Origin: Ignavibacteriales bacterium
GTDB taxonomy: Bacteria > Bacteroidota > Ignavibacteria > Ignavibacteriales > Ignavibacteriaceae
Assembly (NCBI GenBank): GCA_015709675.1
Contig: CP054182.1
Coordinates: 248,001 to 312,000, forward strand
Length of the DNA: 64,000 nucleotides
Direction: 5' to 3'
A program made the position numbers and the translations under genes. Shown piece by piece: positions 39,215 through 54,963 of this stretch (its first letter is position 1; the number at the start of each line of letters is the position of its first letter). The notes under the pieces are model-generated. The model made no database searches, was not told the DNA's origin, and saw nothing but the letters and a program-made list of their open reading frames with translations.

Positions 39215-39877
39215 ATGCGCTTTCTCATTAAAACCACCCCAAACCTTGAAATTGTCCCCTTTAACTACCAGCAAAAACTTCTCGGCGTTTTCCATAAATG
39301 GCTTGGGGAGGAGAATCCCCATCATGATCAACTAAGTCTTTACTCCGTAGGATGGCTTTGGGGATCAAAATCTCACCGTGAAGGATTTATTTTCCAAGAT
39401 GGAGCAGACTGGTCAATTTCTGCGTGGGATGAAAAAATTCAGACAAGACTTACCAACGCAATAACATTAGACCAGGAGCTTTTTTGCGGTATGAGAATTA
39501 AAGAAATAAAAACCATGAAAACCCCAGAGTTCGGAAACGACTATACATTTAAAACCCTCAGCCCAATATTAGCCCGAATAAAAAGGGAAAATGGCACCAC
39601 CGAACACTTAACCTATCTCCACGATAATTTTCCTGAAAGATTAAAACAGATTCTCTTAAAAAAAGCAAATCATGCAAAATTGGAATTATCGGATTTTAGC
39701 ATAATTATTGAGAAAAACTTTAAAGGGAACAGGATTAAGGTAGTTACTCTCAATAAAGTGGGTAATAAAGCCAATTTTGTAAAGGTAAGGATGCAAGGTG
39801 ATGAAAATGCAATTAAATTTGCCTGGTGTGTGGGTTTGGGTGAATCTACAGGATCATGTTTTGGAGGGTTAAGATGA
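39215..39877 (+). CDS. cas6: Cas6 pre-crRNA endoribonuclease
   Basis: 220 residues, first gene of the cas operon. The protein has the paired ferredoxin-fold pattern of Cas6 and ends in the glycine-rich loop GLGESTGSCFGGLR, the family's signature C-terminal motif. WCVGLGESTG aligns with the RNA-binding G-loop. It cuts the array transcript within each repeat, leaving an 8-nt 5' handle, here predicted AUUGAAAU. It overlaps cas5 by 4 bp (ATGA). The catalytic histidine cannot be fixed by eye; H22 and H27 in the N-terminal region are candidates. Confidence 0.88.
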   Translation: MRFLIKTTPNLEIVPFNYQQKLLGVFHKWLGEENPHHDQLSLYSVGWLWGSKSHREGFIFQDGADWSISAWDEKIQTRLTNAITLDQELFCGMRIKEIKTMKTPEFGNDYTFKTLSPILARIKRENGTTEHLTYLHDNFPERLKQILLKKANHAKLELSDFSIIIEKNFKGNRIKVVTLNKVGNKANFVKVRMQGDENAIKFAWCVGLGESTGSCFGGLR

Positions 39878-40545
39878 GCACTAATAAAATTTCATTGGAT
39901 TTTCTCTTACAGGAGCCAACATTTGATAAAACTCTGGTTCTAAAGATAACACCCCTTACTCCTCTCTCAATGGTGAGCAAGCTGCCCGGAAGTTATTATC
40001 ACTCCTCACTTGAACCTACGAACCAAATGGTATTTGGAATGATTGAGAATTTATTATCCTTTCATTTTTCACCTGATATCCGAAATCAAATTGAAAAACG
40101 ACTTAAAAAGGAATTCAAAAAATCATTTAACGCGTTGCCCGAATCGGGTTCAGGTTATAAAAGCATACTTTCGAATCATATAAAAATTGAAAGTATTAAT
40201 AAGCCGGAAGAAACTACTTCTTTTGAGGATTTATGGAGCCAACAACTCAAGCGCAATGATAAAGGACACTTGAACGGTTCACGCAACTATGATTGGCGCC
40301 TGGAGCAAAAACTTGATACACTTGAAGAAAAATTGCAAACACAATATTACCCGTACTATTATATTAGCCCCACCAATAGAGAATATATATTATGCAAAGG
40401 CAGTTATTCTATTGCGTTAACAACTAACAAGGAACTTGCTCAGCGCATTAGAGAAGGTCTTTCAAATTTGAATACACCCCTATATCTTGGCTCAAATGAT
40501 GGGTGGATTGAAGTTATCGCGGAGGTATCTGATGAAAAATTATAG
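39874..40545 (+). CDS. cas5: Cas5 Cascade subunit (type I-B, PGING-like)
   Basis: The start at 39874 overlaps the cas6 stop and has GGAGG 6 nt upstream; an upstream ATG at 39856 has no such site. It is 223 residues. The N-terminal VLKITPLTPLSMVSKLPGSYY and NQMVFGMIENLLSFHF resemble the Cas5 RAMP of the Porphyromonas gingivalis-type (PGING) I-B variant. It should cap the crRNA 5' handle in Cascade. It lies before cas8 rather than after cas7, unlike the standard I-B order. The family call rests on position and partial recognition. Confidence 0.75.
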   Translation: MSTNKISLDFLLQEPTFDKTLVLKITPLTPLSMVSKLPGSYYHSSLEPTNQMVFGMIENLLSFHFSPDIRNQIEKRLKKEFKKSFNALPESGSGYKSILSNHIKIESINKPEETTSFEDLWSQQLKRNDKGHLNGSRNYDWRLEQKLDTLEEKLQTQYYPYYYISPTNREYILCKGSYSIALTTNKELAQRIREGLSNLNTPLYLGSNDGWIEVIAEVSDEKL

Positions 40546-41992
40546 TTTTTTACCAAGATATGGATTGGCATACGCTTGTCACCACTTTAAGAAAACGAAC
40601 CCTGGTGAATTAACCGCAAAAGATTTATCAGAGGTACTTAATTTAGAACTTAGTTATTTCAGATTGGCAACAAATAATGATCCGCAAATAGAAAGTGAAT
40701 TAAAGTTTGAATATAAAAATGTTGCAAAAGGAAATGCAGCAAAAGGTCTTTATTTGTCATCTCATGTACTTAGCACTGATAAATCTTCAGAACAAACTCA
40801 CAAAAGTATCACAAAAATTATATCAGAACTAAAAAATGGTTCACTCGACCAACGAATAAACCTGGATAAATCATTTTCCGTTACTACAAGTAAAATTAAT
40901 AATGGAAAAAGATCTCAAACCACCCCAACGGGTGAACTTGAAGAAGCTGCCCTGAGTGCAATTGGGGCAATAACGATGCGCAAACCCGCCCGATATGATG
41001 CTGTAAGCAATAACTACAGTTCAATAATACCCGACTTGGAACTCAACGACCTTATTCTTTTCATTAAGGTTTTTGAAAATATGCAATCATCAGGTCTTAT
41101 GGATTCTGCAAAAACTGCAAAAGTGAACGAGAAAAAGCGTGGCTTTAAGCGACCTCAAATCAGTTATGGAAACTTTCCTTTTGCGCCTCTTGATTCAACC
41201 TTTGCGGCTATCGGACTACTGGCTGCCCTGGGGCAATGGGCTAAAAACAGCGAAACCTTTTCTGAAGAGGCGATTCAAGTATGTGAACTTTTGGGTAAAG
41301 CGCGAATTTACATAGTAAGTTATAGTGGTGTTCACCAAACCCAATTCAGTCATGCAGCGGTTTCTCTTTCAAAAAGTGGTGCTCTCTATAACTTTTTACA
41401 AAGTCTTTACAGAGCGGGCTGGCAAGGTCTGCAAAACAAACACGAAAATGACAGAAAGTTGTTTTTCTTGTTTACCGCAAGATTTTTACAGTTTTTTACC
41501 CCTCACTACTTTAAGGATTTTTTATCAATCAGAATGGAATACGAAAATGAAATTACCAACTTATTTAAGGAATACTTCACTATGAACGGTATCAAAGAAA
41601 GTCATGTGCAATCCGTTTCAACACTTGGGCGATGGATTAACAGAGCAGCATACTTTTATGCTTTGGAAAATTCAGATAACAAGCAAGACTATGACAAGAT
41701 AAACACACTCAAAGCAAAAACACTTGCCGAGATTGAAAGTACTGTTTTGGCTGCAAAATCAGCCACTGCTTTAATCTCACAAGTAATCACAAGAATCGGG
41801 CGACTGAGCTATCAGGATGCTCCGGCTGAAGCAGAATTATTTATAAATGCGGTGATGACAGGTGAGATACCTTTGCAAAACTCAAAAGAATTAATCATGG
41901 CTTATTCCCGTATTAAAAACACTTCCAAAACTGAAACTGAAATTAACAACAACCCTTATCCAACTGAAGGAGTCGAAAATGAAGACAATTAA
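40532..41992 (+). CDS. cas8: Cas8 large Cascade subunit (Csp2-like)
   Basis: The ATG at 40532 has a near-perfect GGAGGT 5 nt upstream and overlaps the cas5 stop by 14 bp; a longer frame from 40487 is less likely. It is 486 residues. The start KNYSFLPRYGLAYACHHFKK and the central RPQISYGNFPFAPLDSTFAAIGLLAALGQW are unlike classic Cas8b but fit the Csp2/Cas8 of the PGING subtype. The large subunit recognises the PAM and recruits Cas3. There is no visible nuclease domain. Assignment depends strongly on its slot between cas5 and cas7. Confidence 0.75.
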   Translation: MKNYSFLPRYGLAYACHHFKKTNPGELTAKDLSEVLNLELSYFRLATNNDPQIESELKFEYKNVAKGNAAKGLYLSSHVLSTDKSSEQTHKSITKIISELKNGSLDQRINLDKSFSVTTSKINNGKRSQTTPTGELEEAALSAIGAITMRKPARYDAVSNNYSSIIPDLELNDLILFIKVFENMQSSGLMDSAKTAKVNEKKRGFKRPQISYGNFPFAPLDSTFAAIGLLAALGQWAKNSETFSEEAIQVCELLGKARIYIVSYSGVHQTQFSHAAVSLSKSGALYNFLQSLYRAGWQGLQNKHENDRKLFFLFTARFLQFFTPHYFKDFLSIRMEYENEITNLFKEYFTMNGIKESHVQSVSTLGRWINRAAYFYALENSDNKQDYDKINTLKAKTLAEIESTVLAAKSATALISQVITRIGRLSYQDAPAEAELFINAVMTGEIPLQNSKELIMAYSRIKNTSKTETEINNNPYPTEGVENEDN

Positions 41993-42920
41993 AGGAATCC
42001 TTATCTCATCCGTAGTTCCAATGGCAAATCATATTGCTAATGGCGGTGAAAAACTGCTTGGCAATGCCTCGTCAATAAAAAGAAGACCTGATAACAGAGT
42101 TTATATTTCTGGGCAGATGCAGCGTCATGTTTTGTTCCGTACAATGGAACTACTTAATTTTGAAGATGGTAACCGGGGCACTACCTATGTATCAAACGGT
42201 GACGGCGTAACCAATATGGTAGAACGCGATCTTAGGGCTGATATGGGTGGCTTCCTGCATACATCACTTGGCAGCTACTCCGGAAGAAGAACCGCACCAC
42301 TTACGGCAACTCCGGCAGTTTCACTTGGCGAAAGTGAAGTAGGGCGGGATCTTCTTATCCGTCTGAAGGTTAAAAAAGATTCCGGTGCTGATCAGGCATT
42401 AGCCACTAAGGAGTATTCACAGGCAGACGACATGTTAATGAATTTCCATCTTGATCTTATTAATCTGAGCATCTCCAAAAAGTTTGAATATGCAGGTGAA
42501 AAAGACGGAATGCATATAGAAACAAAATATGTTAAACATTGTAGTGAAGAAGAACGACTGCGACGCGTAAAATTGTTCATTAACTCAACTCGCTATATGC
42601 TTCATTATGCAAATCAGGCACGAAATGCCGTTCAGGGTGAACCGCAGAAAGTGCTTATCGTACTTGATACTTTATTAAGCAGAAAAGCAATCAGATTCTT
42701 TGAAGCTGAAGAACAAGAAAAGCAAAACATATTGGCAGAATTAACCGACCGAGGTGCATTATGGTTTCTTGGTGATGATACAGGCAAGACTCCTGATGCT
42801 TCCAGTGTGCTAACTGCATATACAGAAGCACTTAAATTTTTAACGAGCTCTGAATGTCAGATCTTTGATATAACCACTGGTGCTGCACCCGTAGCGTTTG
42901 CGGAGGCGTTTAAAGAATAA
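41979..42920 (+). CDS. cas7: Cas7 Cascade backbone (DevR/Csp1-like)
   Basis: 313 residues. The N-terminus KTIKGILISSVVPMANHIANGGEKLLGNASSIKRRPDNRVYISGQMQRHVLF is typical of the DevR-type Cas7 family, especially its PGING (Csp1) branch. GGFLHTSLGSYSGRRTAPLTATPAVSL forms the conserved thumb region. Several copies coat the spacer part of crRNA. It overlaps cas8 by 14 bp and has GGAG upstream; cas3 starts 3 bp after its stop. Confidence 0.92.
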   Translation: MKTIKGILISSVVPMANHIANGGEKLLGNASSIKRRPDNRVYISGQMQRHVLFRTMELLNFEDGNRGTTYVSNGDGVTNMVERDLRADMGGFLHTSLGSYSGRRTAPLTATPAVSLGESEVGRDLLIRLKVKKDSGADQALATKEYSQADDMLMNFHLDLINLSISKKFEYAGEKDGMHIETKYVKHCSEEERLRRVKLFINSTRYMLHYANQARNAVQGEPQKVLIVLDTLLSRKAIRFFEAEEQEKQNILAELTDRGALWFLGDDTGKTPDASSVLTAYTEALKFLTSSECQIFDITTGAAPVAFAEAFKE

Positions 42921-42923
42921 GAT

Positions 42924-45092
42924 ATGTATCTGGCAAAACCAACAGGCATAACTCTTAAAGAGCATACCGCTCATGTAATGGAGGAGGCGGAGTATATTCT
43001 CTCCGCCTGCCCATTCTATGAAGAAAAGTATTTTGCTTTCACTGGCGTCCCACTGAGAGAGATGTTGTTTAATGCGGTTAAATATCATGATGCAGGCAAA
43101 ATGCATGACAAATGGCAGAAGGCCTGTCAGCAAGATTATTTGCTGTTTAAACAATCTGGAGTTGATAAAGCTGTAAACCTGATGAAGGCAAATCTTCGGC
43201 ATGAGTTTGCATCAATTGACTATTGTAGAATTAAAAATATTTCATTAAGCGATGAAGTTACAGTTGCAATTGCTGCTCACCACCGTAAACTCAGCAGGTA
43301 TTATCAAAGTAGGCTGGAACGAGAAGGTTGGACTGATATTTTTAATCAAATACTCCGGTTGAATAACCGTGAGTTAAGCAGAAATGATAATATTTTTAAT
43401 GATATCATCAAGAAAAAATTTCGTTTTTCAGCAGTTCGTGCATTGCTGCAGCTCGCAGATCACCGCGCCAGTGCTAAAGAGGGGGGTATTAATGTTCTGC
43501 CGTTAACCAAATTTTCCTACAAATTCCCTCATCCCGAGATGAATCAGGTGCAGAAACTGGCTTTAGAAGGCGCCTCTCAGCTATTGACTCTGCTAAGAGC
43601 ACCCACAGGTGCAGGAAAAACCGATGCAGCATTTTTATGGGGAAGCAAATTAATTGAGAATAAACTTGCTGACAGAGTGGTGATAGCCCTCCCCACAAGA
43701 TTCACTGCCAACTCCATGGCAGTGGGCGCAGCGGAAAAACTAAGCAGCACTGGACTTTATCATTCTACCTCTGATATGTTTTTGAATGATAAAAATCTCA
43801 GGTCATTATCAAGATTACTAATGACCCCGGTTACTATTACAACTATAGATCATTTGCTGATAGCTCTTACAGGTACTGAGGAAGATCATCATACAATTTT
43901 TTACAATCTTGCAAATGCGGCATTAGTTATTGACGAGGCAGATTTTTATGATTCATTTACTCAGGCAAATATTCTAACTCTCTTGCAGGCACTTTCCGTG
44001 CTCAAAGTTCCGGTATTGGTAATGAGTGCGACACTGCCCGAGGTATCACAAAAATTTTATCAGGTGGAAGGGAACCAGCTCCCTCAGATTCTTAATGATT
44101 CATTTGATGAATCAAGAATTAAGTGCACCATCAGTAAAATTGAAGAGGAAGAAGCAATCACTTATGCACTTAATCAAATAAAGTCCAGTGGTAAAAAAAT
44201 AATTTTTTTCGCTAATACCATTGACCGGGCTCTTAATTACTATAAAGCAATAGAGGAGCAAGGATTTAATGCCATATTATATCACAGCAGATTCACAGAA
44301 CCCGACAAGAAAGAAAAAGAGTCACTCCTTTTGAATGCATTTGGACCTGAGAGCAAAGCCGATGCAGTCAGAATTGCAATACTTACCCAAATAGGTGAAA
44401 TGAGTGTAAATATCAGCAGTGACATAATGTTTTCAGATATCTGTCCGGGTGATAGAATGGTTCAAAGAATTGGCAGACTAAAGAGATTTAGTAAAGAACC
44501 AGGTGAACTTTTTTATATTGAACCTAAAGATAAAAATGGTGAGTTTTATCCAGCGCCTTATGGCGAGTTTAACAGAGCCAGCAAAGCATGGATACCAGCA
44601 TTAGCCCTGCAAAAAACCCTGACACTAATAGAGCAGAGGTCATATACCTTTAAACAGCTTCTGGAATTAGTGAATAGAATTTATTCTGAACTGCCTGATT
44701 GTGATGCAACTGCTCTTGCCAATAAAAATTTATACTATTCACTAATCTGTAATAATAATATTGTGTTGCCGGCAGCGGATGCTGACGAAGACAACGCAAC
44801 TGCCGGTGACTGGAAGAGCCGTCAAGGTATTGACCAGGTTAAAGTTTTTATTAATCTTAATGGTCAATTTGAGTTTGCAAACCGTTATGATTTTTATCAA
44901 TTTGAATTTGAAAACACCGTGCAGATTCCTATTTACTTAAAACACAAGCTCATAAAAGACAATCTATTGGGAAAAGAAAAGGTAATCATTCGCTCTGATG
45001 AACAGGAGATAAATATACTTACTGCCCGCTTTCAGGATTATTCATTTGAAAAGGGATTTATGCCTTCAGCAGATAACGATACATTCCTCTAA
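42924..45092 (+). CDS. cas3: Cas3 HD nuclease-helicase
   Basis: 722 residues. An N-terminal HD nuclease domain carries H14, the H55-D56 pair in KYHDAGKMHDKW, H93 and the H119-H120 pair in AIAAHHRKLS. The helicase has Walker A APTGAGKTD (226-234), DEAD box VIDEADFYD (D337-D340) and motif III MSATLP (367-372). Motif VI is MVQRIGRLKRF. All catalytic residues look intact, so target degradation should work. Nuclease and helicase are fused, as is usual for I-B. It is 3 bp after cas7. Confidence 0.96.
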   Translation: MYLAKPTGITLKEHTAHVMEEAEYILSACPFYEEKYFAFTGVPLREMLFNAVKYHDAGKMHDKWQKACQQDYLLFKQSGVDKAVNLMKANLRHEFASIDYCRIKNISLSDEVTVAIAAHHRKLSRYYQSRLEREGWTDIFNQILRLNNRELSRNDNIFNDIIKKKFRFSAVRALLQLADHRASAKEGGINVLPLTKFSYKFPHPEMNQVQKLALEGASQLLTLLRAPTGAGKTDAAFLWGSKLIENKLADRVVIALPTRFTANSMAVGAAEKLSSTGLYHSTSDMFLNDKNLRSLSRLLMTPVTITTIDHLLIALTGTEEDHHTIFYNLANAALVIDEADFYDSFTQANILTLLQALSVLKVPVLVMSATLPEVSQKFYQVEGNQLPQILNDSFDESRIKCTISKIEEEEAITYALNQIKSSGKKIIFFANTIDRALNYYKAIEEQGFNAILYHSRFTEPDKKEKESLLLNAFGPESKADAVRIAILTQIGEMSVNISSDIMFSDICPGDRMVQRIGRLKRFSKEPGELFYIEPKDKNGEFYPAPYGEFNRASKAWIPALALQKTLTLIEQRSYTFKQLLELVNRIYSELPDCDATALANKNLYYSLICNNNIVLPAADADEDNATAGDWKSRQGIDQVKVFINLNGQFEFANRYDFYQFEFENTVQIPIYLKHKLIKDNLLGKEKVIIRSDEQEINILTARFQDYSFEKGFMPSADNDTFL

Positions 45093-45103
45093 ATAACATC
45101 CTT

Positions 45104-45586
45104 ATGACCGGCACATACATTCATTATTACTATCTCTGTAAAAGGAAGCTCTGGCTGTTTGCCAAGACCATTGATATGGAGCATAACTCTGATCTTGTGC
45201 ACTCAGGTAAATTTATTTCCGAAAGCACCTACACAAGGGCAGAACATGAACTTAGGATTGGAGATATCACGCTGGATTTTTTTGACAGAAAAACGCGCAC
45301 TATCCATGAAATAAAAAGAACCGATGCCCTTGATGAAGTGCACACCTGGCAGGTTAAGTTTTATATTTTTTATCTTGAAGCAAATGGCGTTGACGGCGTA
45401 ACCGGCATAATTGACTACCCCAAACTCAGGAAAAAGATCAAAGTGCAGCTTTACCCCGATGACCGCGAGGAGTTGCAAAAAACAATTGAAGATATTAAGA
45501 AGCTCTTAGCCCTGCCCACTCCCCCGCCCGTGATTGACAAGCCATTTTGCTCTAAGTGCGCCTATTTTGATTTGTGTTACAGTTAA
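45104..45586 (+). CDS. cas4: Cas4 PAM-processing nuclease
   Basis: 160 residues. RecB-like fold with HEIKRTDALDEVHTWQVKFYIFYL (the E-x-K and Q-x-x-x-Y motifs) and the four iron-sulphur cysteines: C12 in LCKRKLWLF and C149, C152, C158 in FCSKCAYFDLC. Cas4 trims prespacers and enforces PAM and orientation with Cas1-Cas2. It is compact but complete. An ORF frame of cas1 extends back over its end, but the real cas1 ATG is 8 bp after the cas4 stop. Confidence 0.93.
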   Translation: MTGTYIHYYYLCKRKLWLFAKTIDMEHNSDLVHSGKFISESTYTRAEHELRIGDITLDFFDRKTRTIHEIKRTDALDEVHTWQVKFYIFYLEANGVDGVTGIIDYPKLRKKIKVQLYPDDREELQKTIEDIKKLLALPTPPPVIDKPFCSKCAYFDLCYS

Positions 45587-45593
45587 GCCTGAT

Positions 45594-46691
45594 ATGAAAA
45601 GACACTACTATATATTTTCAAACGGAAAACTAATACGCCGCCAGAACACTCTTTACTTTGAAGAATCTAAGGAACAGGAGTTGCGTGAGGAGACCGAGGA
45701 AAGCCCTGATACAGATTTGCTTGAGGTTGAAGATACTCAGGCAGAGGAATCTGAGGAAAGCCAGGAGCCAAAGAGGGTTCAGCGAAAACCAATTCCCGTT
45801 GAGGATATTGAATCGCTCTACTGCTTTAGTGAGCTTAAGTTTAACACAAAATTCCTGAACTTTATTGCCAAGAACCAGATTACCCTGCACCTGTTTAATT
45901 ACTATGGCTACTATAGCGGAAGTTTTTACCCAAGGGAGCCCTTTGTTTCAGGACGGCTTCTGGTAGAGCAGGTGAGCTGCTACCGTGACCCTGAAAAACG
46001 CCTTGCCCTTGCCAGAAAATTTGTTTCAGGTGCGGCTGATAACATGCTAAAAAATCTGCAATACTATAACGCCCGCCAGAGAGATATGGAACCCTTCATT
46101 CAGGCAATAAAGAAGTATATGACCGGGATTGACCAAAGCCGTGATATCCCCTCGCTGATGGGCATTGAGGGAAATATCCGCTCTACCTACTATGAATCAT
46201 GGCATCTGATAATCACTGAAGCCATTGATTTTAAGAAACGCGAAAAGCACCCGCCAACTAATCCGGTTAATGCCCTCATCTCATTCGGCAATTCATTAGT
46301 TTATACAACAGTATTAAGTGAGATTTATAAAACCCAGCTTAACCCCCTTATCAGTTTTCTGCATGAGCCGGGCGAAAGGCGCTTTTCACTTTCGCTTGAT
46401 ATTGCTGAAATTTTTAAGCCGCTGCTTGCTGACCGGGTCATCTTTACCCTGCTGAACAAAAAAATGCTTGGGGGAAAGGATTTTGAAAAAGACCTGGGAT
46501 ACTGTTATCTTAGCGAGCAAGGGAGAAAGATTTTTGTGAAGGAGTTTGATGACAAAATTAAAACCACCATCAAACACCGGAAACTGAACAAGCAGGTAAG
46601 CTACCGGCATCTGATACGGCTTGAGTGTTATAAAATTATCAAGCACATCCTGGGTGACAGCCAATATCAGCCATTTACTATCTGGTGGTAG
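45594..46691 (+). CDS. cas1: Cas1 integrase with acidic N-terminal insertion
   Basis: 365 residues from the ATG at 45594; an upstream start at 45534 would overlap cas4 and add an implausible leader. The catalytic site is complete: E192 in IEGNIRSTYY, H257 in FLHEPGERR and E272 in DIAEIFKP. Between the N-terminal strands, residues ~24-63 form a very acidic, low-complexity insert (repeated EE, ESEESQEP) absent from ordinary I-B Cas1, where the NTLYFE strand leads almost directly into PIPVEDIE. The insert lies in the N-terminal beta domain at the dimer surface. The rest aligns normally. Confidence 0.95.
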   Translation: MKRHYYIFSNGKLIRRQNTLYFEESKEQELREETEESPDTDLLEVEDTQAEESEESQEPKRVQRKPIPVEDIESLYCFSELKFNTKFLNFIAKNQITLHLFNYYGYYSGSFYPREPFVSGRLLVEQVSCYRDPEKRLALARKFVSGAADNMLKNLQYYNARQRDMEPFIQAIKKYMTGIDQSRDIPSLMGIEGNIRSTYYESWHLIITEAIDFKKREKHPPTNPVNALISFGNSLVYTTVLSEIYKTQLNPLISFLHEPGERRFSLSLDIAEIFKPLLADRVIFTLLNKKMLGGKDFEKDLGYCYLSEQGRKIFVKEFDDKIKTTIKHRKLNKQVSYRHLIRLECYKIIKHILGDSQYQPFTIWW

Positions 46692-46703
46692 GAGAACAGA
46701 GCG

Positions 46704-46970
46704 ATGTACGTAGTGTTGTTTTATGATATTAAGAAAGGCCCAAGAGCACCAAAAGTGTTAAAATATCTGAGGCAAAAACTTATCTGGATACAAAACTCCG
46801 TATTTGAGGGAGAGGTTACCGAGGCACAGTTTGAGGAGATCACCGAAACCCTGCACGACATGATAAACACCGAGAAGGACAGCATAATATATTATACATT
46901 TGACAGCATGAAATATTCAAAAAGAGAGGTATTAGGAATAGAGAAAAACCCTACTGACTCGTTTATATAG
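46704..46970 (+). CDS. cas2: Cas2
   Basis: 88 residues with the ferredoxin-fold start MYVVLFYDIKKGPRAPKVLKYLRQKLIWIQNSVFEGEVT typical of Cas2. TAGGAGA precedes the ATG and the gene starts 12 bp after cas1. It bridges two Cas1 dimers during spacer integration. It is the last cas gene; the array's first repeat begins 104 bp further on. Confidence 0.95.
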   Translation: MYVVLFYDIKKGPRAPKVLKYLRQKLIWIQNSVFEGEVTEAQFEEITETLHDMINTEKDSIIYYTFDSMKYSKREVLGIEKNPTDSFI

Positions 46971-47074
46971 AGAAAAAATCGTCGCACCCCCCTGTTTTTT
47001 GCAGTATTAGCCATAGACGACAGGAATGGGTAAAAAAACCGCCAAAACACCCCAAAAAGCGGGTTTTTGGGCGG
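46971..47074 (+). promoter_or_regulatory. CRISPR leader
   Basis: The 104 bp between cas2 and the first repeat is the leader: repeats read with ATTGAAAT at their 3' side, and the degenerate end is the far one. It is short and contains an inverted repeat, CCCAAAAA (47051-47058 region) / TTTTTGGG, only a few bases before repeat 1. No separate promoter could be placed with confidence, so read-through from cas2 is possible. Confidence 0.75.
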
Positions 47075-50000
47075 ACTTTAATCGCACCTATATGGAATTG
47101 AAATTCGTGTCGGTGATGTCTTAGTTGCTGACGGTAAAAACTTTAATCGCACCTATATGGAATTGAAATCTTCAAATACTTCTTTGATGCTCATGCCTGC
47201 AACATGAACTTTAATCGCACCTATATGGAATTGAAATTTAATCAGCTACACCGATAACGGCAAAGCATTTAAAAACTTTAATCGCACCTATATGGAATTG
47301 AAATGCAGGAACCTGCACGTCGAGTGCATCATTTGCGGAAACTTTAATCGCACCTATATGGAATTGAAATTTTGTTTTCAGCGAGAGCTTCCGTGAAACA
47401 ATCGAAACTTTAATCGCACCTATATGGAATTGAAATTCAGTCATTTCAACCTCGTCACCGGGAATGAAAGAGACTTTAATCGCACCTATATGGAATTGAA
47501 ATCGTTTCTGGTCTCTCTGGCTATGTCTGAGGTCTCAGACTTTAATCGCACCTATATGGAATTGAAATTTCTATAAATCAACAGCAGAATAGCTTCCCAA
47601 TACACACTTTAATCGCACCTATATGGAATTGAAATTACTCCACGGGCAAATATCATCACCTGGTTGATGTAACTTTAATCGCACCTATATGGAATTGAAA
47701 TAATGCAGATCTCACTCAGCCGACTGTAAACACGATCGACTTTAATCGCACCTATATGGAATTGAAATGAGTGAACCAATATCGGCATTTACTTTATTGT
47801 GTGACTTTAATCGCACCTATATGGAATTGAAATTCTGAAATGCTTTGCTGTTAAAGCTGGTGGAATCTTACTTTAATCGCACCTATATGGAATTGAAATT
47901 TTTTATGTTTTGTTTTAAGTTGCCGCATTACTATTACTTTAATCGCACCTATATGGAATTGAAATCTGAAACGGCGAAGCTGCCTGCATCCGGGGTGACG
48001 GACTTTAATCGCACCTATATGGAATTGAAATGGAGCCAGTTATATCCAATAAGAACCAATATCGATTGACTTTAATCGCACCTATATGGAATTGAAATTT
48101 GAATCTTTTGTTGATTCATCAATGGTTCCCCACTGAACTTTAATCGCACCTATATGGAATTGAAATTGATTTGATAACTATTATTAAAATCCTTTTCCGG
48201 CTCTGACTTTAATCGCACCTATATGGAATTGAAATTATTTTTACTCCTGTTCATTTACTCTCTTGTTGAGAGACTTTAATCGCACCTATATGGAATTGAA
48301 ATTTCTTCCTTTGTTACGTTAAGATAAGGTTGCCCGTACTTTAATCGCACCTATATGGAATTGAAATGGGGATTGACGATGTTCAAAATATCGTCCCTCA
48401 TCAACTTTAATCGCACCTATATGGAATTGAAATGGATTAACATATAACTCCGCTGGTGAGGTTAAGTTAACTTTAATCGCACCTATATGGAATTGAAATG
48501 AGAGACCATCGGAGAGAAGATATCGCTGGCATATATACTTTAATCGCACCTATATGGAATTGAAATACGTGCTAACATTGGACTTATTCATTGGTTTTGT
48601 GAACTTTAATCGCACCTATATGGAATTGAAATCGTACATTTCGATTTCGCGCTGGGTGAAGAAGCGTTTACTTTAATCGCACCTATATGGAATTGAAATT
48701 CAGAAAGGCAATACTAATGCTACTAATCCTTACATACTTTAATCGCACCTATATGGAATTGAAATGTATGTAAAGTTTTGTTTTCCAATTAAACCAATTC
48801 AACTTTAATCGCACCTATATGGAATTGAAATTGTTCATTACGCTTGCATAATCAGCACCGCCGCCGGACTTTAATCGCACCTATATGGAATTGAAATGAG
48901 TGTAGAACTGAGAAACTACCATAGAGATAAATCACTTTAATCGCACCTATATGGAATTGAAATGGATTCCGTTAAAGCTATATACGGCAATCCCTGCGAA
49001 ACTTTAATCGCACCTATATGGAATTGAAATCGGAAAGAAGTCGTAGAGATTATCTCTGAAGCCAGAAACTTTAATCGCACCTATATGGAATTGAAATTGC
49101 AAGGAGCAGAGCAGCGGAGAATTTATCTTCACCACTTTAATCGCACCTATATGGAATTGAAATGCACTTGAAGCGCTGAGCTGATCCAGAACAAGCAGAA
49201 ACTTTAATCGCACCTATATGGAATTGAAATTACCGTAACCGTATCGGTCGTTCCCGTTCCGGGTATAGACTTTAATCGCACCTATATGGAATTGAAATGG
49301 TAGATATAACGCTGCAACAGCCGGCAACAAACCTACTTTAATCGCACCTATATGGAATTGAAATCTATATACGCGCATATATTCGATATTTTGGTATTTA
49401 TACTTTAATCGCACCTATATGGAATTGAAATTTTGTCCGGTACTCTTTGTAGGTGATTTTAATCTCCACTTTAATCGCACCTATATGGAATTGAAATTAT
49501 ATCATCTACGATAAAATCGTATTGATTGTTTATACTTTAATCGCACCTATATGGAATTGAAATGCGGCAATTGTTTGCGTATTATATAGAGTGGTGCTCA
49601 CTTTAATCGCACCTATATGGAATTGAAATGACGGTCCAGAACCCAGTAGGTTGTAAGTGCCTCCAGACTTTAATCGCACCTATATGGAATTGAAATCAGA
49701 GCTTTATGTGATAAGGGAGCCGGAAGGAGAGGACTTTAATCGCACCTATATGGAATTGAAATGAGATTTCCAGCCGTGTCACCCCAGTAAAGCGTTTTAA
49801 CTTTAATCGCACCTATATGGAATTGAAATTGAGGCATTTGTGCGCGATTTCTGCGGCTTCTTTTAGACTTTAATCGCACCTATATGGAATTGAAATCGAC
49901 CCGTCCCTTCTTCGTGTCGGTGATGTCTTAGTACTTTAATCGCACCTATATGGAATTGAAATAGGCAAAATTGACAAAATGTCACACTGGATTTCTGCAC

Positions 50001-53000
50001 TTTAATCGCACCTATATGGAATTGAAATAGGGTTTTATGCGTGTGTTATCGACGCCGTGCGGAAACTTTAATCGCACCTATATGGAATTGAAATTTCATT
50101 AAAACATGATTTAAGGTAAGGTATATAATTTACTTTAATCGCACCTATATGGAATTGAAATGGGCTTTATAAAAATCGTTATCAGGGGAATAGTGAAACT
50201 TTAATCGCACCTATATGGAATTGAAATCGCAAAGTAATTTCTGCAAATTACTGAGCTGATGGACTTTAATCGCACCTATATGGAATTGAAATTTCAAAGG
50301 CATCAACATGGATGAGACGCTGCGCGAAACTTTAATCGCACCTATATGGAATTGAAATGTCAAAGGTCATAGATTTTCGATTGCCTTTATGAGTTACTTT
50401 AATCGCACCTATATGGAATTGAAATTGAGGAATTACTTAATCATAAAGGATAATATATATGAACTTTAATCGCACCTATATGGAATTGAAATGCATATTT
50501 ATTAGTTTGCACCTCATCTGCCTTCGGGCTTTAATCGCACCTATATGGAATTGAAATGTCTTCGCAATGCCTTATAACTCAAAGGCAAAGCATACTTTAA
50601 TCGCACCTATATGGAATTGAAATAAGAGAAAATTACCGATAAAGATGTTGCTGCCTGCGACTTTAATCGCACCTATATGGAATTGAAATAGTTGAAGAAG
50701 ATATGTTGTCGAAACGAGTCCATCTACTTTAATCGCACCTATATGGAATTGAAATAAATCCCAGACGGAAACATAATAAACCCAGCAACAACTTTAATCG
50801 CACCTATATGGAATTGAAATAATCAGTAGTGAACGCTTGCAGAGAGAGAGTAGAGACTTTAATCGCACCTATATGGAATTGAAATTTGCCTGAATAAGTT
50901 TTTCAAGCAATGAATTTGCTTACTTTAATCGCACCTATATGGAATTGAAATCTACTAAAGATGCAGCAATATCCTCAAGTCGTGCTTACTTTAATCGCAC
51001 CTATATGGAATTGAAATAATTCTTACAGCAGAGAAATGGTTATTGAGCCAAAAACTTTAATCGCACCTATATGGAATTGAAATCCAAAAGTGCAAAATTC
51101 AGGAGGTTGGAATTGATAAACTTTAATCGCACCTATATGGAATTGAAATGTACAAAGCTCAGAAAAATCCGACTCAGTATGATCCAAACTTTAATCGCAC
51201 CTATATGGAATTGAAATATCTTGAGGCGAAAATTGATTTACTTGAAGGCAAGGACTTTAATCGCACCTATATGGAATTGAAATTACTGAGCAATTATAAA
51301 TAATGACGAATCATAAACAACTTTAATCGCACCTATATGGAATTGAAATTGTTATCACCGAGCAGAAGTTTTGCAGAATTGATGCCTTTAATCGCACCTA
51401 TATGGAATTGAAATGAGTGTAACGAATTGATTCAGGACTTTGAGCAGGTCACTTTAATCGCACCTATATGGAATTGAAATACCTGTGCACTGTATTTTGA
51501 GGGTCAATTCGTTCACACTTTAATCGCACCTATATGGAATTGAAATTTATTTGTTGTCTCCATCCGAAACAAAAGGTATTTGTACTTTAATCGCACCTAT
51601 ATGGAATTGAAATCTTCTATTATTGAGGATATTAAAAAAAGACAGAGAAACTTTAATCGCACCTATATGGAATTGAAATGTACATCATCAATTCAACAGA
51701 TGCGGGAATATATATCACTTTAATCGCACCTATATGGAATTGAAATGGGGGCTTTTGTTGCAATGCGCACCGGGATTACATTAACTTTAATCGCACCTAT
51801 ATGGAATTGAAATTGAATACTACGATGAAACTGGTGCGGCTTCTGCGGAACTTTAATCGCACCTATATGGAATTGAAATGGTTATATCGCTACGCTGCAG
51901 AAAATCATCAGCATAACTTTAATCGCACCTATATGGAATTGAAATTTTTTCTTCTGCTGGGATATAACGAATAATATCGCCGAACTTTAATCGCACCTAT
52001 ATGGAATTGAAATCGGAAATGTATGTGAAAGTTGCAAGCGGAACGGATGAACTTTAATCGCACCTATATGGAATTGAAATGTGGGAGTTCGGATATAAAA
52101 ACACTGGCGGCGGAAACTTTAATCGCACCTATATGGAATTGAAATAGCGCAAAGCCGACGGCTCCGCCTGCCGCTGCCTGACTTTAATCGCACCTATATG
52201 GAATTGAAATATCTCTAAAACCATTACCAATGGAAGCTGTATTACCAACTTTAATCGCACCTATATGGAATTGAAATTATGGTATATCCTCAATGCCGTT
52301 TGTAGTTCTCCGGACTTTAATCGCACCTATATGGAATTGAAATCCTGAAAGCTTATCAGGATTCAGGCGGAGTTTGGACACTTTAATCGCACCTATATGG
52401 AATTGAAATTAAACTTCACCGTTAAGATATTTTTCATAAGTTTTAAACTTTAATCGCACCTATATGGAATTGAAATACGCTTTGCTGAAAAAGTATGAAA
52501 ATAATCCTGACTACTTTAATCGCACCTATATGGAATTGAAATTCCTGAATAATCTTCACTATTATAAAAATGTTTATCCTTTAATCGCACCTATATGGAA
52601 TTGAAATAATGCTAAATTCAGCTGAAGGCGTATGCTTGTTTAGTACTTTAATCGCACCTATATGGAATTGAAATTGAGCAGATTAAAGAACGTTATGCGA
52701 AATCCGGTGACTTTAATCGCACCTATATGGAATTGAAATCTGGGACGGAGATGATGTTTTCGCACGGGCAGAGGAACTTTAATCGCACCTATATGGAATT
52801 GAAATTTCTGTTTTGTTTATGAGTGAATGTTAAATCCTCTTCACTTTAATCGCACCTATATGGAATTGAAATTCATTTGGCAGGTAATTTAGAACCGCCA
52901 TTTTGATAAACTTTAATCGCACCTATATGGAATTGAAATCCTGCTGAAGTCCGTTATCAAATTTCATTTCGGCATAACTTTAATCGCACCTATATGGAAT

Positions 53001-54527
53001 TGAAATGCATAAGATCTGCATTTCTAAGATTTCCCGCCTTGACTTTAATCGCACCTATATGGAATTGAAATGCTGAATAAACTTTGGTGATTTCCTGTGC
53101 GTTGAGGACTTTAATCGCACCTATATGGAATTGAAATGATAGCGGGGATAAATTGGGGATAAAATTTACCGAAACTTTAATCGCACCTATATGGAATTGA
53201 AATGTAACCGACTCAATTACCTCCCTCAAAAAAGCATAGACTTTAATCGCACCTATATGGAATTGAAATATTTTTCAACATTGTTTTATAATGCGGCCGG
53301 CACTTACTTTAATCGCACCTATATGGAATTGAAATGCTTCTGTTATGCTGTAAATAACTGCATAAACAGAAACTTTAATCGCACCTATATGGAATTGAAA
53401 TGGATAACTGCTATTACTATGTGGATCGGGTTATCCCAACTTTAATCGCACCTATATGGAATTGAAATTTTGAGGGTTCCACCGGCTGTTTGATAAATTG
53501 CAGGACTTTAATCGCACCTATATGGAATTGAAATAGTTCACGGTTAATTTTGTATATATTAGCCGTCATCACTTTAATCGCACCTATATGGAATTGAAAT
53601 CCCTGAATCTTCCAGTAATTATCAGAAGCCGCGGCAAACTTTAATCGCACCTATATGGAATTGAAATCTATCAAGTCCAGGGAAAGAGTATCTCCCCACT
53701 CCCACTTTAATCGCACCTATATGGAATTGAAATATTTTTGGGACAGAGAAATGCTATCAGGTCTTCCGCACTTTAATCGCACCTATATGGAATTGAAATT
53801 AAGTCGTCCTTTTTGGTGCTGCGGGCAAAGGAGGGACTTTAATCGCACCTATATGGAATTGAAATTGTAATGCTCAAACAATTCATTTGCTTTACTTTGT
53901 GACTTTAATCGCACCTATATGGAATTGAAATAAATACTCCCGCTTGAAGTACAGGTCTATAAACCACCTTTAATCGCACCTATATGGAATTGAAATGTAG
54001 GTTCCTTTAAGGATGATTGGGAGAATATCCGTACTTTAATCGCACCTATATGGAATTGAAATGCGGTTTGGTGATCTCTTTACGCTGTTCGTCAAGCTAC
54101 TTTAATCGCACCTATATGGAATTGAAATGCAAAATAGATCTTACCTTAAGCGGCAATAAGCGCGCTTTAATCGCACCTATATGGAATTGAAATCTATATA
54201 CACGCCCCCTGAGCTCTGCACCATTGAGCAACTTTAATCGCACCTATATGGAATTGAAATTAATCATGTAGTTGGTTTTTCTCCGCTCCGGGTTACTACT
54301 TTAATCGCACCTATATGGAATTGAAATAAGCCCTGCAGAAGCTGCGGCAAGGAGATTGTTTTCCACTTTAATCGCACCTATATGGAATTGAAATGAGCAA
54401 ATGGATAACTCGGGTTAGACTGCTCAATCTGACTTTAATCGCACCTATATGGAATTGAAATATCGGCTCGCCTCCGAAACGAAGGTATAAAATCCAGACT
54501 TTAATCGGACCTATATGGAATTGAAAT
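47075..54527 (+). CRISPR. CRISPR array, 113 repeats and 112 spacers
   Basis: The 30-bp repeat begins ACTTTAATCG, continues CACCTATAT and ends GGAATTGAAAT. I counted 113 copies and 112 spacers of 35-39 nt (mostly 36). The first base is A in all but five repeats (near 50529, 51386, 52579, 53967 and 54164), where the spacer edge is C or G. The last repeat (54498-54527) has a C-to-G change. Together with the degenerate copies beyond, this marks the right end as the old, leader-distal end. The 8-nt handle fits type I-B. Spacers read as protein-coding fragments with phage character (see findings). Confidence 0.99.
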
Positions 54528-54963
54528 TTCGGGGAATTATGAAGTTTGAAGTATGAATTATGAACTGATTGGGGGCCCTGTTCTTCAATTATTCATGGTT
54601 CATTATACATTGTTCATTATTTTTGTACCTATATGGAATTGAAACTTCGGGGAATTATGAAGTCTGAAGTATGAATTATGTACTGATTGGGGGCCCTGTT
54701 CTTCAATTATTCATTGTTCATTATACATTGTTCATTGTTTTCGCACCTATATGGAATTGAAACCTCTAAGAATTATGAGGTTTGAATTATGAAGTATGAA
54801 TTTGTCCCGCAGTACATTACTAATTGCTAACTACTAATTACTAATTGTTTTCCGCCTTTATGGAATTGAAACCTCTAAGAATTATGAGGTTTGAATTATG
54901 AAGTATGAATTTGTCCCGCAGTACATTACTAATTGCTAACTACTAATTACTAATTACTAATTG
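54528..54963. repeat. Degenerate CRISPR repeats embedded in two tandem duplications
   Basis: 54528-54645 and 54646-54763 are near-identical 118-bp tandem copies. 54764-54872 and 54873-~54963 are a second tandem pair. Copies 1-3 each end in a worn CRISPR repeat (54616-54645, 54734-54763, 54844-54872) keeping TATGGAATTGAAAC but altered at the 5' side; the fourth copy lacks it. The filler contains GAATTATGAAG and runs of TTCATTGTTCATT or ACTAATTACTAATT. No gene lies here; the next begins at 55030. Confidence 0.9.

What the first reader, a model, noticed from the sequence alone, without database searches (positions are those of the whole stretch)
47105..49932. Two overlapping spacers reveal a 50-bp protospacer and a candidate PAM without any database
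The first 21 nt of spacer 1 (47105-47125) are identical to the last 21 nt of spacer 43 (49912-49932). Joined, they reconstruct 50 bp of target in which spacer 1 is preceded by CTTCT. In type I systems the PAM lies 5' of the protospacer on this strand. The window itself therefore suggests a PAM ending in TTCT or TCT, if both came from the same allele. The 15-nt offset on the same strand is typical of slipped or primed acquisition.
Basis: partly seen in the sequence, partly recalled or inferred. Interest (0 to 1): 0.65.

Follow-up and report, generated by a model that had tools for sequence, protein, structure and literature searches.

The report
Overlapping CRISPR spacers hit phage transposase
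Two spacers in a bacterial CRISPR array overlap by 21 letters because they were taken at different times from the same spot in a Mu-like phage's transposase gene; read together with a few other targets they point to an ordinary 'C then T' recognition motif, a tidy but unsurprising result.

Summary
Spacer 1 (47105-47139) and spacer 43 (49897-49932) share 21 nt; no other pair among 112 spacers shares more than 12. The joined 50-mer is a genuine contiguous gene piece: it encodes DPSLLRVGDVLVADGK, matching the segment around the first catalytic Asp of Mu-like DDE transposases on both the spacer-43-only and spacer-1-only side. The system is type I-B, PGING-like; the host family is inferred to be Ignavibacteriaceae.

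The donor phage was not found, so the PAM was tested on other spacers. A same-genus genome carries a perfect protospacer for spacer 95 (5' flank CCT) and a 4-mismatch one for spacer 29 (GCT). At 12 homologous, mostly diverged sites, C stands at -2 in 9. Best reading: PAM 5'-NCT, loosely NCN, close to some known I-B PAMs.

'Slipped' acquisition is unsupported: 15 nt is too far. Primed or interference-driven acquisition is plausible: the three newest spacers all appear to fall in the transposase gene that older spacers 43 and 53 already target. Ordinary biology; new member of a known kind.

The parts
39215..39877 (+). cas6
   Evidence: TIGR01877 79.3 bits, over cut-off 58.65; PADLOC Cas6b
39856..40545 (+). 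cas5 (PGING type / Cas5b)
   Evidence: TIGR03488 118 bits, over cut-off 100
40532..41992 (+). cas8 (Csp2-like / Cas8b large subunit); probable ATG start, the listed ORF opens with TTG at 40487; the family searches used 40520-41989 in the same frame
   Evidence: TIGR03487 268.6 bits, below cut-off 461.75; PADLOC Cas8b 297.8 bits
41979..42920 (+). cas7 (Csp1)
   Evidence: TIGR03489 414.9 bits, over cut-off 340.65
42924..45092 (+). cas3 (HD + helicase)
   Evidence: TIGR01587 and TIGR01596 over cut-offs
45104..45586 (+). cas4
   Evidence: TIGR00372 75.8 bits, over cut-off 65
45594..46691 (+). cas1 (I-B type); probable ATG start, the listed ORF opens with TTG at 45534; the family searches used 45588-46688 in the same frame
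   Evidence: TIGR03641 461.7 bits, over cut-off 304.1
46704..46970 (+). cas2
   Evidence: TIGR01573 51 bits, over cut-off 24.5
46971..47074 (+). presumed leader between cas2 and first repeat
   Evidence: position and array polarity; inference
47075..54527 (+). CRISPR array, 113 repeats (29/30 nt, core CTTTAATCGCACCTATATGGAATTGAAAT), 112 spacers; last repeat has one changed base, degenerate units follow
47105..47139 (+). spacer 1 (newest); transposase, first catalytic Asp motif; first 21 nt shared with spacer 43
47170..47207 (+). spacer 2; transposase, antisense (weakest assignment)
   Evidence: score 36; 0.025 of 112 expected at 36 or more
47238..47274 (+). spacer 3; transposase, second catalytic Asp motif (TDNG)
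48964..49000 (+). spacer 29; protospacer in same-genus genome with 4 mismatches, flank GCT
49365..49401 (+). spacer 35; homologous site in the same-genus element (9 mismatches; translated score 43 equals the best shuffled control)
49897..49932 (+). spacer 43; transposase, starts 15 nt upstream of spacer 1's protospacer
50095..50131 (+). spacer 46; same 304-aa gene as spacer 95
50162..50197 (+). spacer 47; same 163-aa gene as spacer 29 (score 40, within control range)
50228..50262 (+). spacer 48; same 304-aa gene as spacer 95 (score 43 equals the best shuffled control)
50558..50593 (+). spacer 53; transposase, ends two codons before the catalytic Glu position
53336..53371 (+). spacer 95; perfect protospacer in same-genus genome, flank CCT
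53668..53703 (+). spacer 100; same 304-aa gene, 7 mismatches, flank CCG

Best explanation
[quoted passage not shown] Cas1-Cas2-Cas4 most likely picked each protospacer beside a 5' PAM whose key base is C at -2, often followed by T (5'-NCT, loosely NCN). Spacer 1 is one of a recent burst (spacers 1-3) from that gene, most simply a re-encounter with a phage already recorded by spacers 43 and 53, that is, primed or interference-driven acquisition. Shown: the overlap, the reality and identity of the joined target, CT at two independent protospacers, and C(-2) at 9 of 12 homologous sites. Inferred: that both spacers come from one allele, that the motif is the functional PAM, and that priming rather than naive uptake was at work.
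For: Overlap. The joined 50-mer translates to DPSLLRVGDVLVADGK, against DTSMLKVGDVFVADGK in L070 and DINRLEVGDVFVADGK in L071; these proteins match PF09299 and a PHROG transposase family, and align with phage Mu, SuMu and phiRTG5 transposases with MuA D269, D336 and E392 as invariant columns (that these are the catalytic residues is recalled). Against the two transposases only, 5 spacers (1, 2, 3, 43, 53) of 112 score 36 or more, where shuffles predict 0.025. Flanks: spacer 95 perfect match CCT, spacer 29 GCT; CT occurs at 5.7% of positions in L073 and L074, so two of two is about 0.3% by chance. C at -2 in 9 of 12 homologous sites against 2.6 expected. If all five transposase assignments hold, the chance that spacers 1, 2 and 3 are all among them is 4.4e-5; leaving out spacer 2, the chance of at least two of the newest three among four is 0.003.
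Against: The donor phage was not found: exact 21-mer absent from viral contigs and genome contigs, both of which may withhold records near the window's own genome; no convincing hit for spacers 1 or 43 in phages, plasmids, own genome, 164 genomes of the order or 391 drawn from the class. The PAM rests on two close protospacers plus diverged homologs. Spacer 100's flank is CCG (7 mismatches), and three of the 12 sites lack C(-2): spacers 3, 47 and 48. In one search the 3' columns, which are out of register, reached raw p of 0.002-0.005, so its 1e-4 for C(-2) is only moderate; the 12 sites include weak assignments. One I-B PAM in print from a Bacteroidota genus is TTTA (Petrimonas; its phylum is recalled); which I-B branch that is I did not check. 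Detection by translation favours conserved genes, so clustering in the transposase is partly ascertainment; in the whole 28-kb relative plus L103, no gene but the transposase gave spacers beyond expectation. With 5 spacers in a 1.7-kb gene, a same-strand overlap of at least 12 nt is expected in 14% of cases anyway.
Confidence: 0.72

Rival explanations
1. The overlap is real, but the two spacers come from divergent relatives of one phage family, so the CTTCT flank belongs to spacer 43's donor only and says nothing about spacer 1's PAM.
For: Other assigned spacers of this array differ from the same-genus element by 0 to 15 of 35-36 nt, so divergent donors are common here.
Against: 21 of 21 nt identical, including the synonymous positions. 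The two homologous transposases, 50% identical in protein, still carry CT at -2/-1 at this site through a shared Leu codon.
Confidence: 0.15
2. No priming: the spacers are independent naive acquisitions from a frequently met phage, and the transposase cluster appears only because it is the one gene conserved enough to recognise by translation.
For: Translated matching sees only conserved genes, and in the 28-kb relative nothing but the transposase was hit beyond expectation. A chance same-strand overlap among 5 spacers in one 1.7-kb gene is 14%.
Against: The recognised spacers are not spread along the array: 1, 2 and 3 are the newest three (4.4e-5, or 0.003 without spacer 2).
Confidence: 0.4
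3. Slipped acquisition: spacer 1 is a mis-registered copy of the same protospacer as spacer 43.
For: Same strand, overlapping.
Against: The offset is 15 nt, the spacers are 42 places apart, and spacer 1 has its own CT flank.
Confidence: 0.04
4. The 21-nt identity arose inside the array (recombination or duplication between repeats), not from a phage.
For: CRISPR arrays can recombine through repeats (recalled).
Against: Duplication through repeats copies whole spacers; here the shared part sits at the 3' end of one spacer and the 5' end of the other, and the non-shared ends extend the same reading frame.
Confidence: 0.01

Closest known systems
Type I-B CRISPR-Cas, PGING (Csp1/Csp2) branch, as in Porphyromonas gingivalis
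   Same: Model hits for Cas5p, Csp1 and Csp2; repeat of 29-30 nt. P. gingivalis array 30.1 is linked to a type I-B operon (PMC13055991, passages).
   Different: Csp2/Cas8 is below the curated NCBIfam cut-off (268.6 against 461.75 bits). The host is inferred to belong to the family of an Ignavibacteriaceae MAG, not Porphyromonas. I did not compare with P. gingivalis sequences directly.
Type I-B PAMs: YCN in C. difficile (PMC8406132, passages); a table of 11 I-B PAMs incl. CCA, CCN, CCT, TCA, TCN, but also TAC, TTA, TTC, TTN, TTG, TTTA (PMC8482600, passages)
   Same: 5' position; C at -2 as in the CCN/TCN group; CCT itself is listed.
   Different: GCT (spacer 29) would fall outside YCN, and the TT- and TAC PAMs of other I-B systems do not fit. 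The sample is small.
Primed or interference-driven adaptation (papers seen only as titles and starts of abstracts in the listing)
   Same: New spacers from a gene already recorded by older spacers, on both strands if spacer 2 is right.
   Different: Only inferred from array order; donor unknown; no acquisition data.
Mu-like (transposable) phages
   Same: Target encodes the DDE core of an A-type transposase.
   Different: The nearest homologs found, L070 and L071, are 50% identical to each other; the donor phage itself is unseen.

Membership tests
Type I-B CRISPR-Cas (PGING branch) | cas8b/csp2 large subunit | tested here: met
   PADLOC Cas8b 297.8 bits; NCBIfam csp2 268.6 bits is below its cut-off 461.75, so type I-B is met but the PGING subfamily label for Cas8 is loose
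Type I-B CRISPR-Cas (PGING branch) | cas7/csp1 and cas5p | tested here: met
   414.9 and 118 bits, both over cut-offs
Type I-B CRISPR-Cas (PGING branch) | cas3, cas6 and cas4-cas1-cas2 in one operon | tested here: met
   all eight genes on the + strand within 39215-46970; G053 shows the same order by eye in its ORF list, with only Cas7 and Cas1 aligned
Type I-B CRISPR-Cas (PGING branch) | 5' PAM of an I-B kind | tested here: inconclusive
   CCT and GCT at two protospacers, C(-2) 9 of 12; too few exact targets
Type I-B CRISPR-Cas (PGING branch) | active DNA interference | not testable with these tools
   needs an experiment
Primed adaptation | new spacers cluster around an old matching protospacer of the same invader | tested here: inconclusive
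   spacers 1-3 in the same gene as 43 and 53, but the donor is unseen and detection is biased to conserved genes
Primed adaptation | dependence on Cascade and Cas3 | not testable with these tools
   needs an experiment
Mu-type DDE transposase (the target gene) | D-D-E catalytic triad | tested here: met
   For homologs P0001 and P0002: D269, D336 and E392 of MuA are invariant columns of a five-sequence alignment. Spacer 1 covers the first D, spacer 3 the second; spacer 53 stops two codons before the E. The donor's own full gene was not seen

The most novel reading that the evidence does not exclude
This PGING-branch I-B system reads essentially one base (C at -2, any base at -3, weak preference at -1), and its array has repeatedly sampled the catalytic core of Mu-like transposases, so that immunity is renewed at the part of the phage that can change least.
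Probability: 0.12. Interest if true: 0.5.

Novelty: new member of a known kind. Interest (0 to 1): 0.33.

Why it matters
It shows that two overlapping spacers can yield a PAM hypothesis from one genome alone, and that reading-frame continuity across the join can validate the reconstruction when the donor phage is unknown. It also gives a testable PAM guess (NCT/NCN) for a PGING-like type I-B system in a presumed Ignavibacteriaceae host and names a Mu-like phage as a recurrent parasite. I saw no printed PAM for the PGING branch in the listings, in the passages of PMC13055991 or in the passages and one section of PMC10367356; these cover open-licence papers only, and the Petrimonas I-B entry of PMC8482600 (TTTA) was not checked for branch.

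Tried and rejected
Direct search for the donor phage: the exact 21-mer in viral contigs and genome contigs; the array in phages, plasmids, own genome, 80 genomes of the family (E up to 0.001), 164 of the order (E up to 1e-5) and 391 drawn evenly from the class (E up to 1e-6; G032 is not among its rows with a match). Apart from the two protospacers in G032, I saw only weak hits or other arrays' repeats; weaker true protospacers would be missed at the stricter limits. Nucleotide search of the three transposase-bearing viral records gave nothing better than E 0.18.

Degenerate back-translated patterns: one gave two Mu-like contigs; one for a 304-aa-gene peptide gave a contig that has 11 mismatches to spacer 95 and was not followed; two gave none; one over 164 genomes found only the array itself. 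A transposase alignment gave one further, remote viral relative (22% identity).

Two genes of the same-genus element were not found in viral contigs and had only remote homologs, in 2 other genomes of 164 and 4 of 80.

A second genome with the same operon (G053; Cas7 76%, Cas1 73% identical) has 49 spacers by the core used, but I found no protospacer for them, so it could not add to the PAM.

Rows dropped before counts: hits with 10 mismatches for spacers 46 (at another locus), 83, 13 and 34, and all 35 hits with 11, were treated as chance (the shuffled control gave 4 and 19); the spacer 53 hit, also at 10, was kept because its translation agrees. In one search, spacers 44 and 9 (score 40) were dropped as isolated, although 47 (40) and 43 (41) were kept because they fall in genes or registers already hit. 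This choice favours my reading. In one search spacer 32 (37) was dropped likewise.

Full report
Observation. The shared 21 nt are exactly where stated. They occur nowhere else in the window, and none of 100 shuffles had a match. They are far above any other spacer pair, the next longest being 12 nt. The array runs on the + strand, with cas2 on its 5' side and degenerate units at the far end. Spacer 1 is therefore taken as the newest and spacer 43 as much older (inference from polarity).

System. Eight genes upstream are cas6, cas5, cas8, cas7, cas3, cas4, cas1 and cas2, matching type I-PGING / I-B models. Cas7 and Cas5 pass the curated PGING cut-offs; Cas8/Csp2 does not. The genome is one contig of 4.21 Mb. 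A same-family genome with the same operon (G053) lies on a contig of 122,255 bases, the length of the named record JABWCL010000008.1, an Ignavibacteriaceae MAG that the Cas7 search found. The host family is thus an inference.

Is the join real? The 50-mer reads DPSLLRVGDVLVADGK. Two viral contigs that contain a back-translated VGDV[L/F]VADG motif encode transposases reading DTSMLKVGDVFVADGK and DINRLEVGDVFVADGK, with the Mu-transposase C-terminal domain. Residues contributed only by spacer 43 (D and L of the left part) and only by spacer 1 (the ADGK end) both match, so the identification does not depend on the shared part. Alignment with MuA puts the Asp of VADG at MuA D269 (its catalytic role is recalled).

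Other spacers in the same gene. Ungapped six-frame comparison with the two transposases gives spacers 3, 1, 53, 43 and 2 with scores 47, 47, 45, 41 and 36; the next is 30. Forty shuffles of all 112 predict 0.025 spacers at 36 or more. Spacer 2 is antisense and the weakest. In the wider scan of 22 loci, 7 of 112 spacers (29, 46, 100, 95, 3, 1, 53) exceed the best of one shuffled control per spacer (43); spacers 48 and 35 equal it; 43 (41) and 47 (40) fall inside the control range and are accepted only because they lie in genes or registers already hit. Scanning the whole 28-kb relative of the phage together with L103 added no other gene: at score 32 or more 13 spacers against 9.2 expected.

PAM test. 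Nucleotide protospacers exist in G032, the only same-genus genome among the 80 of the family searched. Spacer 95 matches 36 of 36 with flank CTTTTCCT; spacer 29 has 4 mismatches with flank GCTCTGCT. Both end in CT, as does the reconstructed flank of spacer 1 (CCCTTCT). CT occurs at 5.7% of positions in L073 and L074. Spacer 100, 7 mismatches, has CCG. At 12 homologous sites, most of them diverged, C stands at -2 nine times against 2.6 expected from gene-, strand- and phase-matched positions; the exceptions are spacers 3, 47 and 48. This was the best of 64 column-base tests (raw p 1e-4), but out-of-register 3' columns reached 0.002 to 0.005, so I count it as moderate support. At spacer 1's site both transposase homologs also have CT because of a Leu codon, so allele differences are unlikely to change this inference.

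Slipped or primed? A 15-nt offset with its own CT motif is not slipping (recalled usage). For priming: spacers 1, 2 and 3 all appear to fall in the gene already recorded by 43 and 53. The chance that the newest three are all among five assigned spacers of 112 is 4.4e-5; without spacer 2, at least two of the newest three among four is 0.003. Against: only conserved genes can be recognised this way, and a same-strand overlap of at least 12 nt is expected in 14% of random sets of five spacers in a 1.7-kb gene, against 0.6% for five in a 37-kb phage. Spacer 1 starts at position 16 of protospacer 43, so it avoids that protospacer's PAM and seed (extent of the seed recalled). That is what one would expect if an escape mutant of spacer 43 had driven the new acquisition, but this is untested. 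Escape changes there would lie at -8 or further from spacer 1 and would not alter the inferred CT.

Comparison with the known. I-B PAMs in print include CCN, CCT and TCN, but also TAC and several TT- motifs (PMC8482600, passages), and YCN in C. difficile (PMC8406132, passages). C at -2 fits the first group only; GCT would widen YCN. For P. gingivalis, 14 perfect spacer hits of one I-B array fall on its own phage (PMC10367356, passages), but the passages seen state no PAM. Verdict: confirmed observation, largely sound idea with an over-long motif, ordinary biology.

Noticed in passing
window 54505-54955: Beyond the last good repeat, two kinds of 109-118-bp tandem units each join the 3' part of a CRISPR repeat to non-spacer sequence.
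   Followed up: partly
L074 8616-10393 and L073 1-2355 (G032 contigs C194 and C145): Seven spacers (29, 35, 46, 47, 48, 95, 100; three of them weak) match genes of an element lying at two contig ends of the same-genus genome, in which no cas7/csp1 gene was found (the genome is 88% complete). Perhaps two ends of one prophage.
   Followed up: partly
window array spacers 1, 3, 53: Recognised transposase spacers sit at or beside the D, D and E motifs; probably detection bias toward conserved codons, but worth testing on the true donor.
   Followed up: partly
L070 and L071: Two Mu-like phage contigs; transposases 50% identical, and a likely transposition ATPase gene beside each (my reading of the ORFs); host not examined.
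   Followed up: no
G159, G058, G034, G021, G096, G162, G136, G047, G052, G073: Ten of 164 genomes of the order carry Mu-like transposase genes 31-36% identical to L071's.
   Followed up: partly
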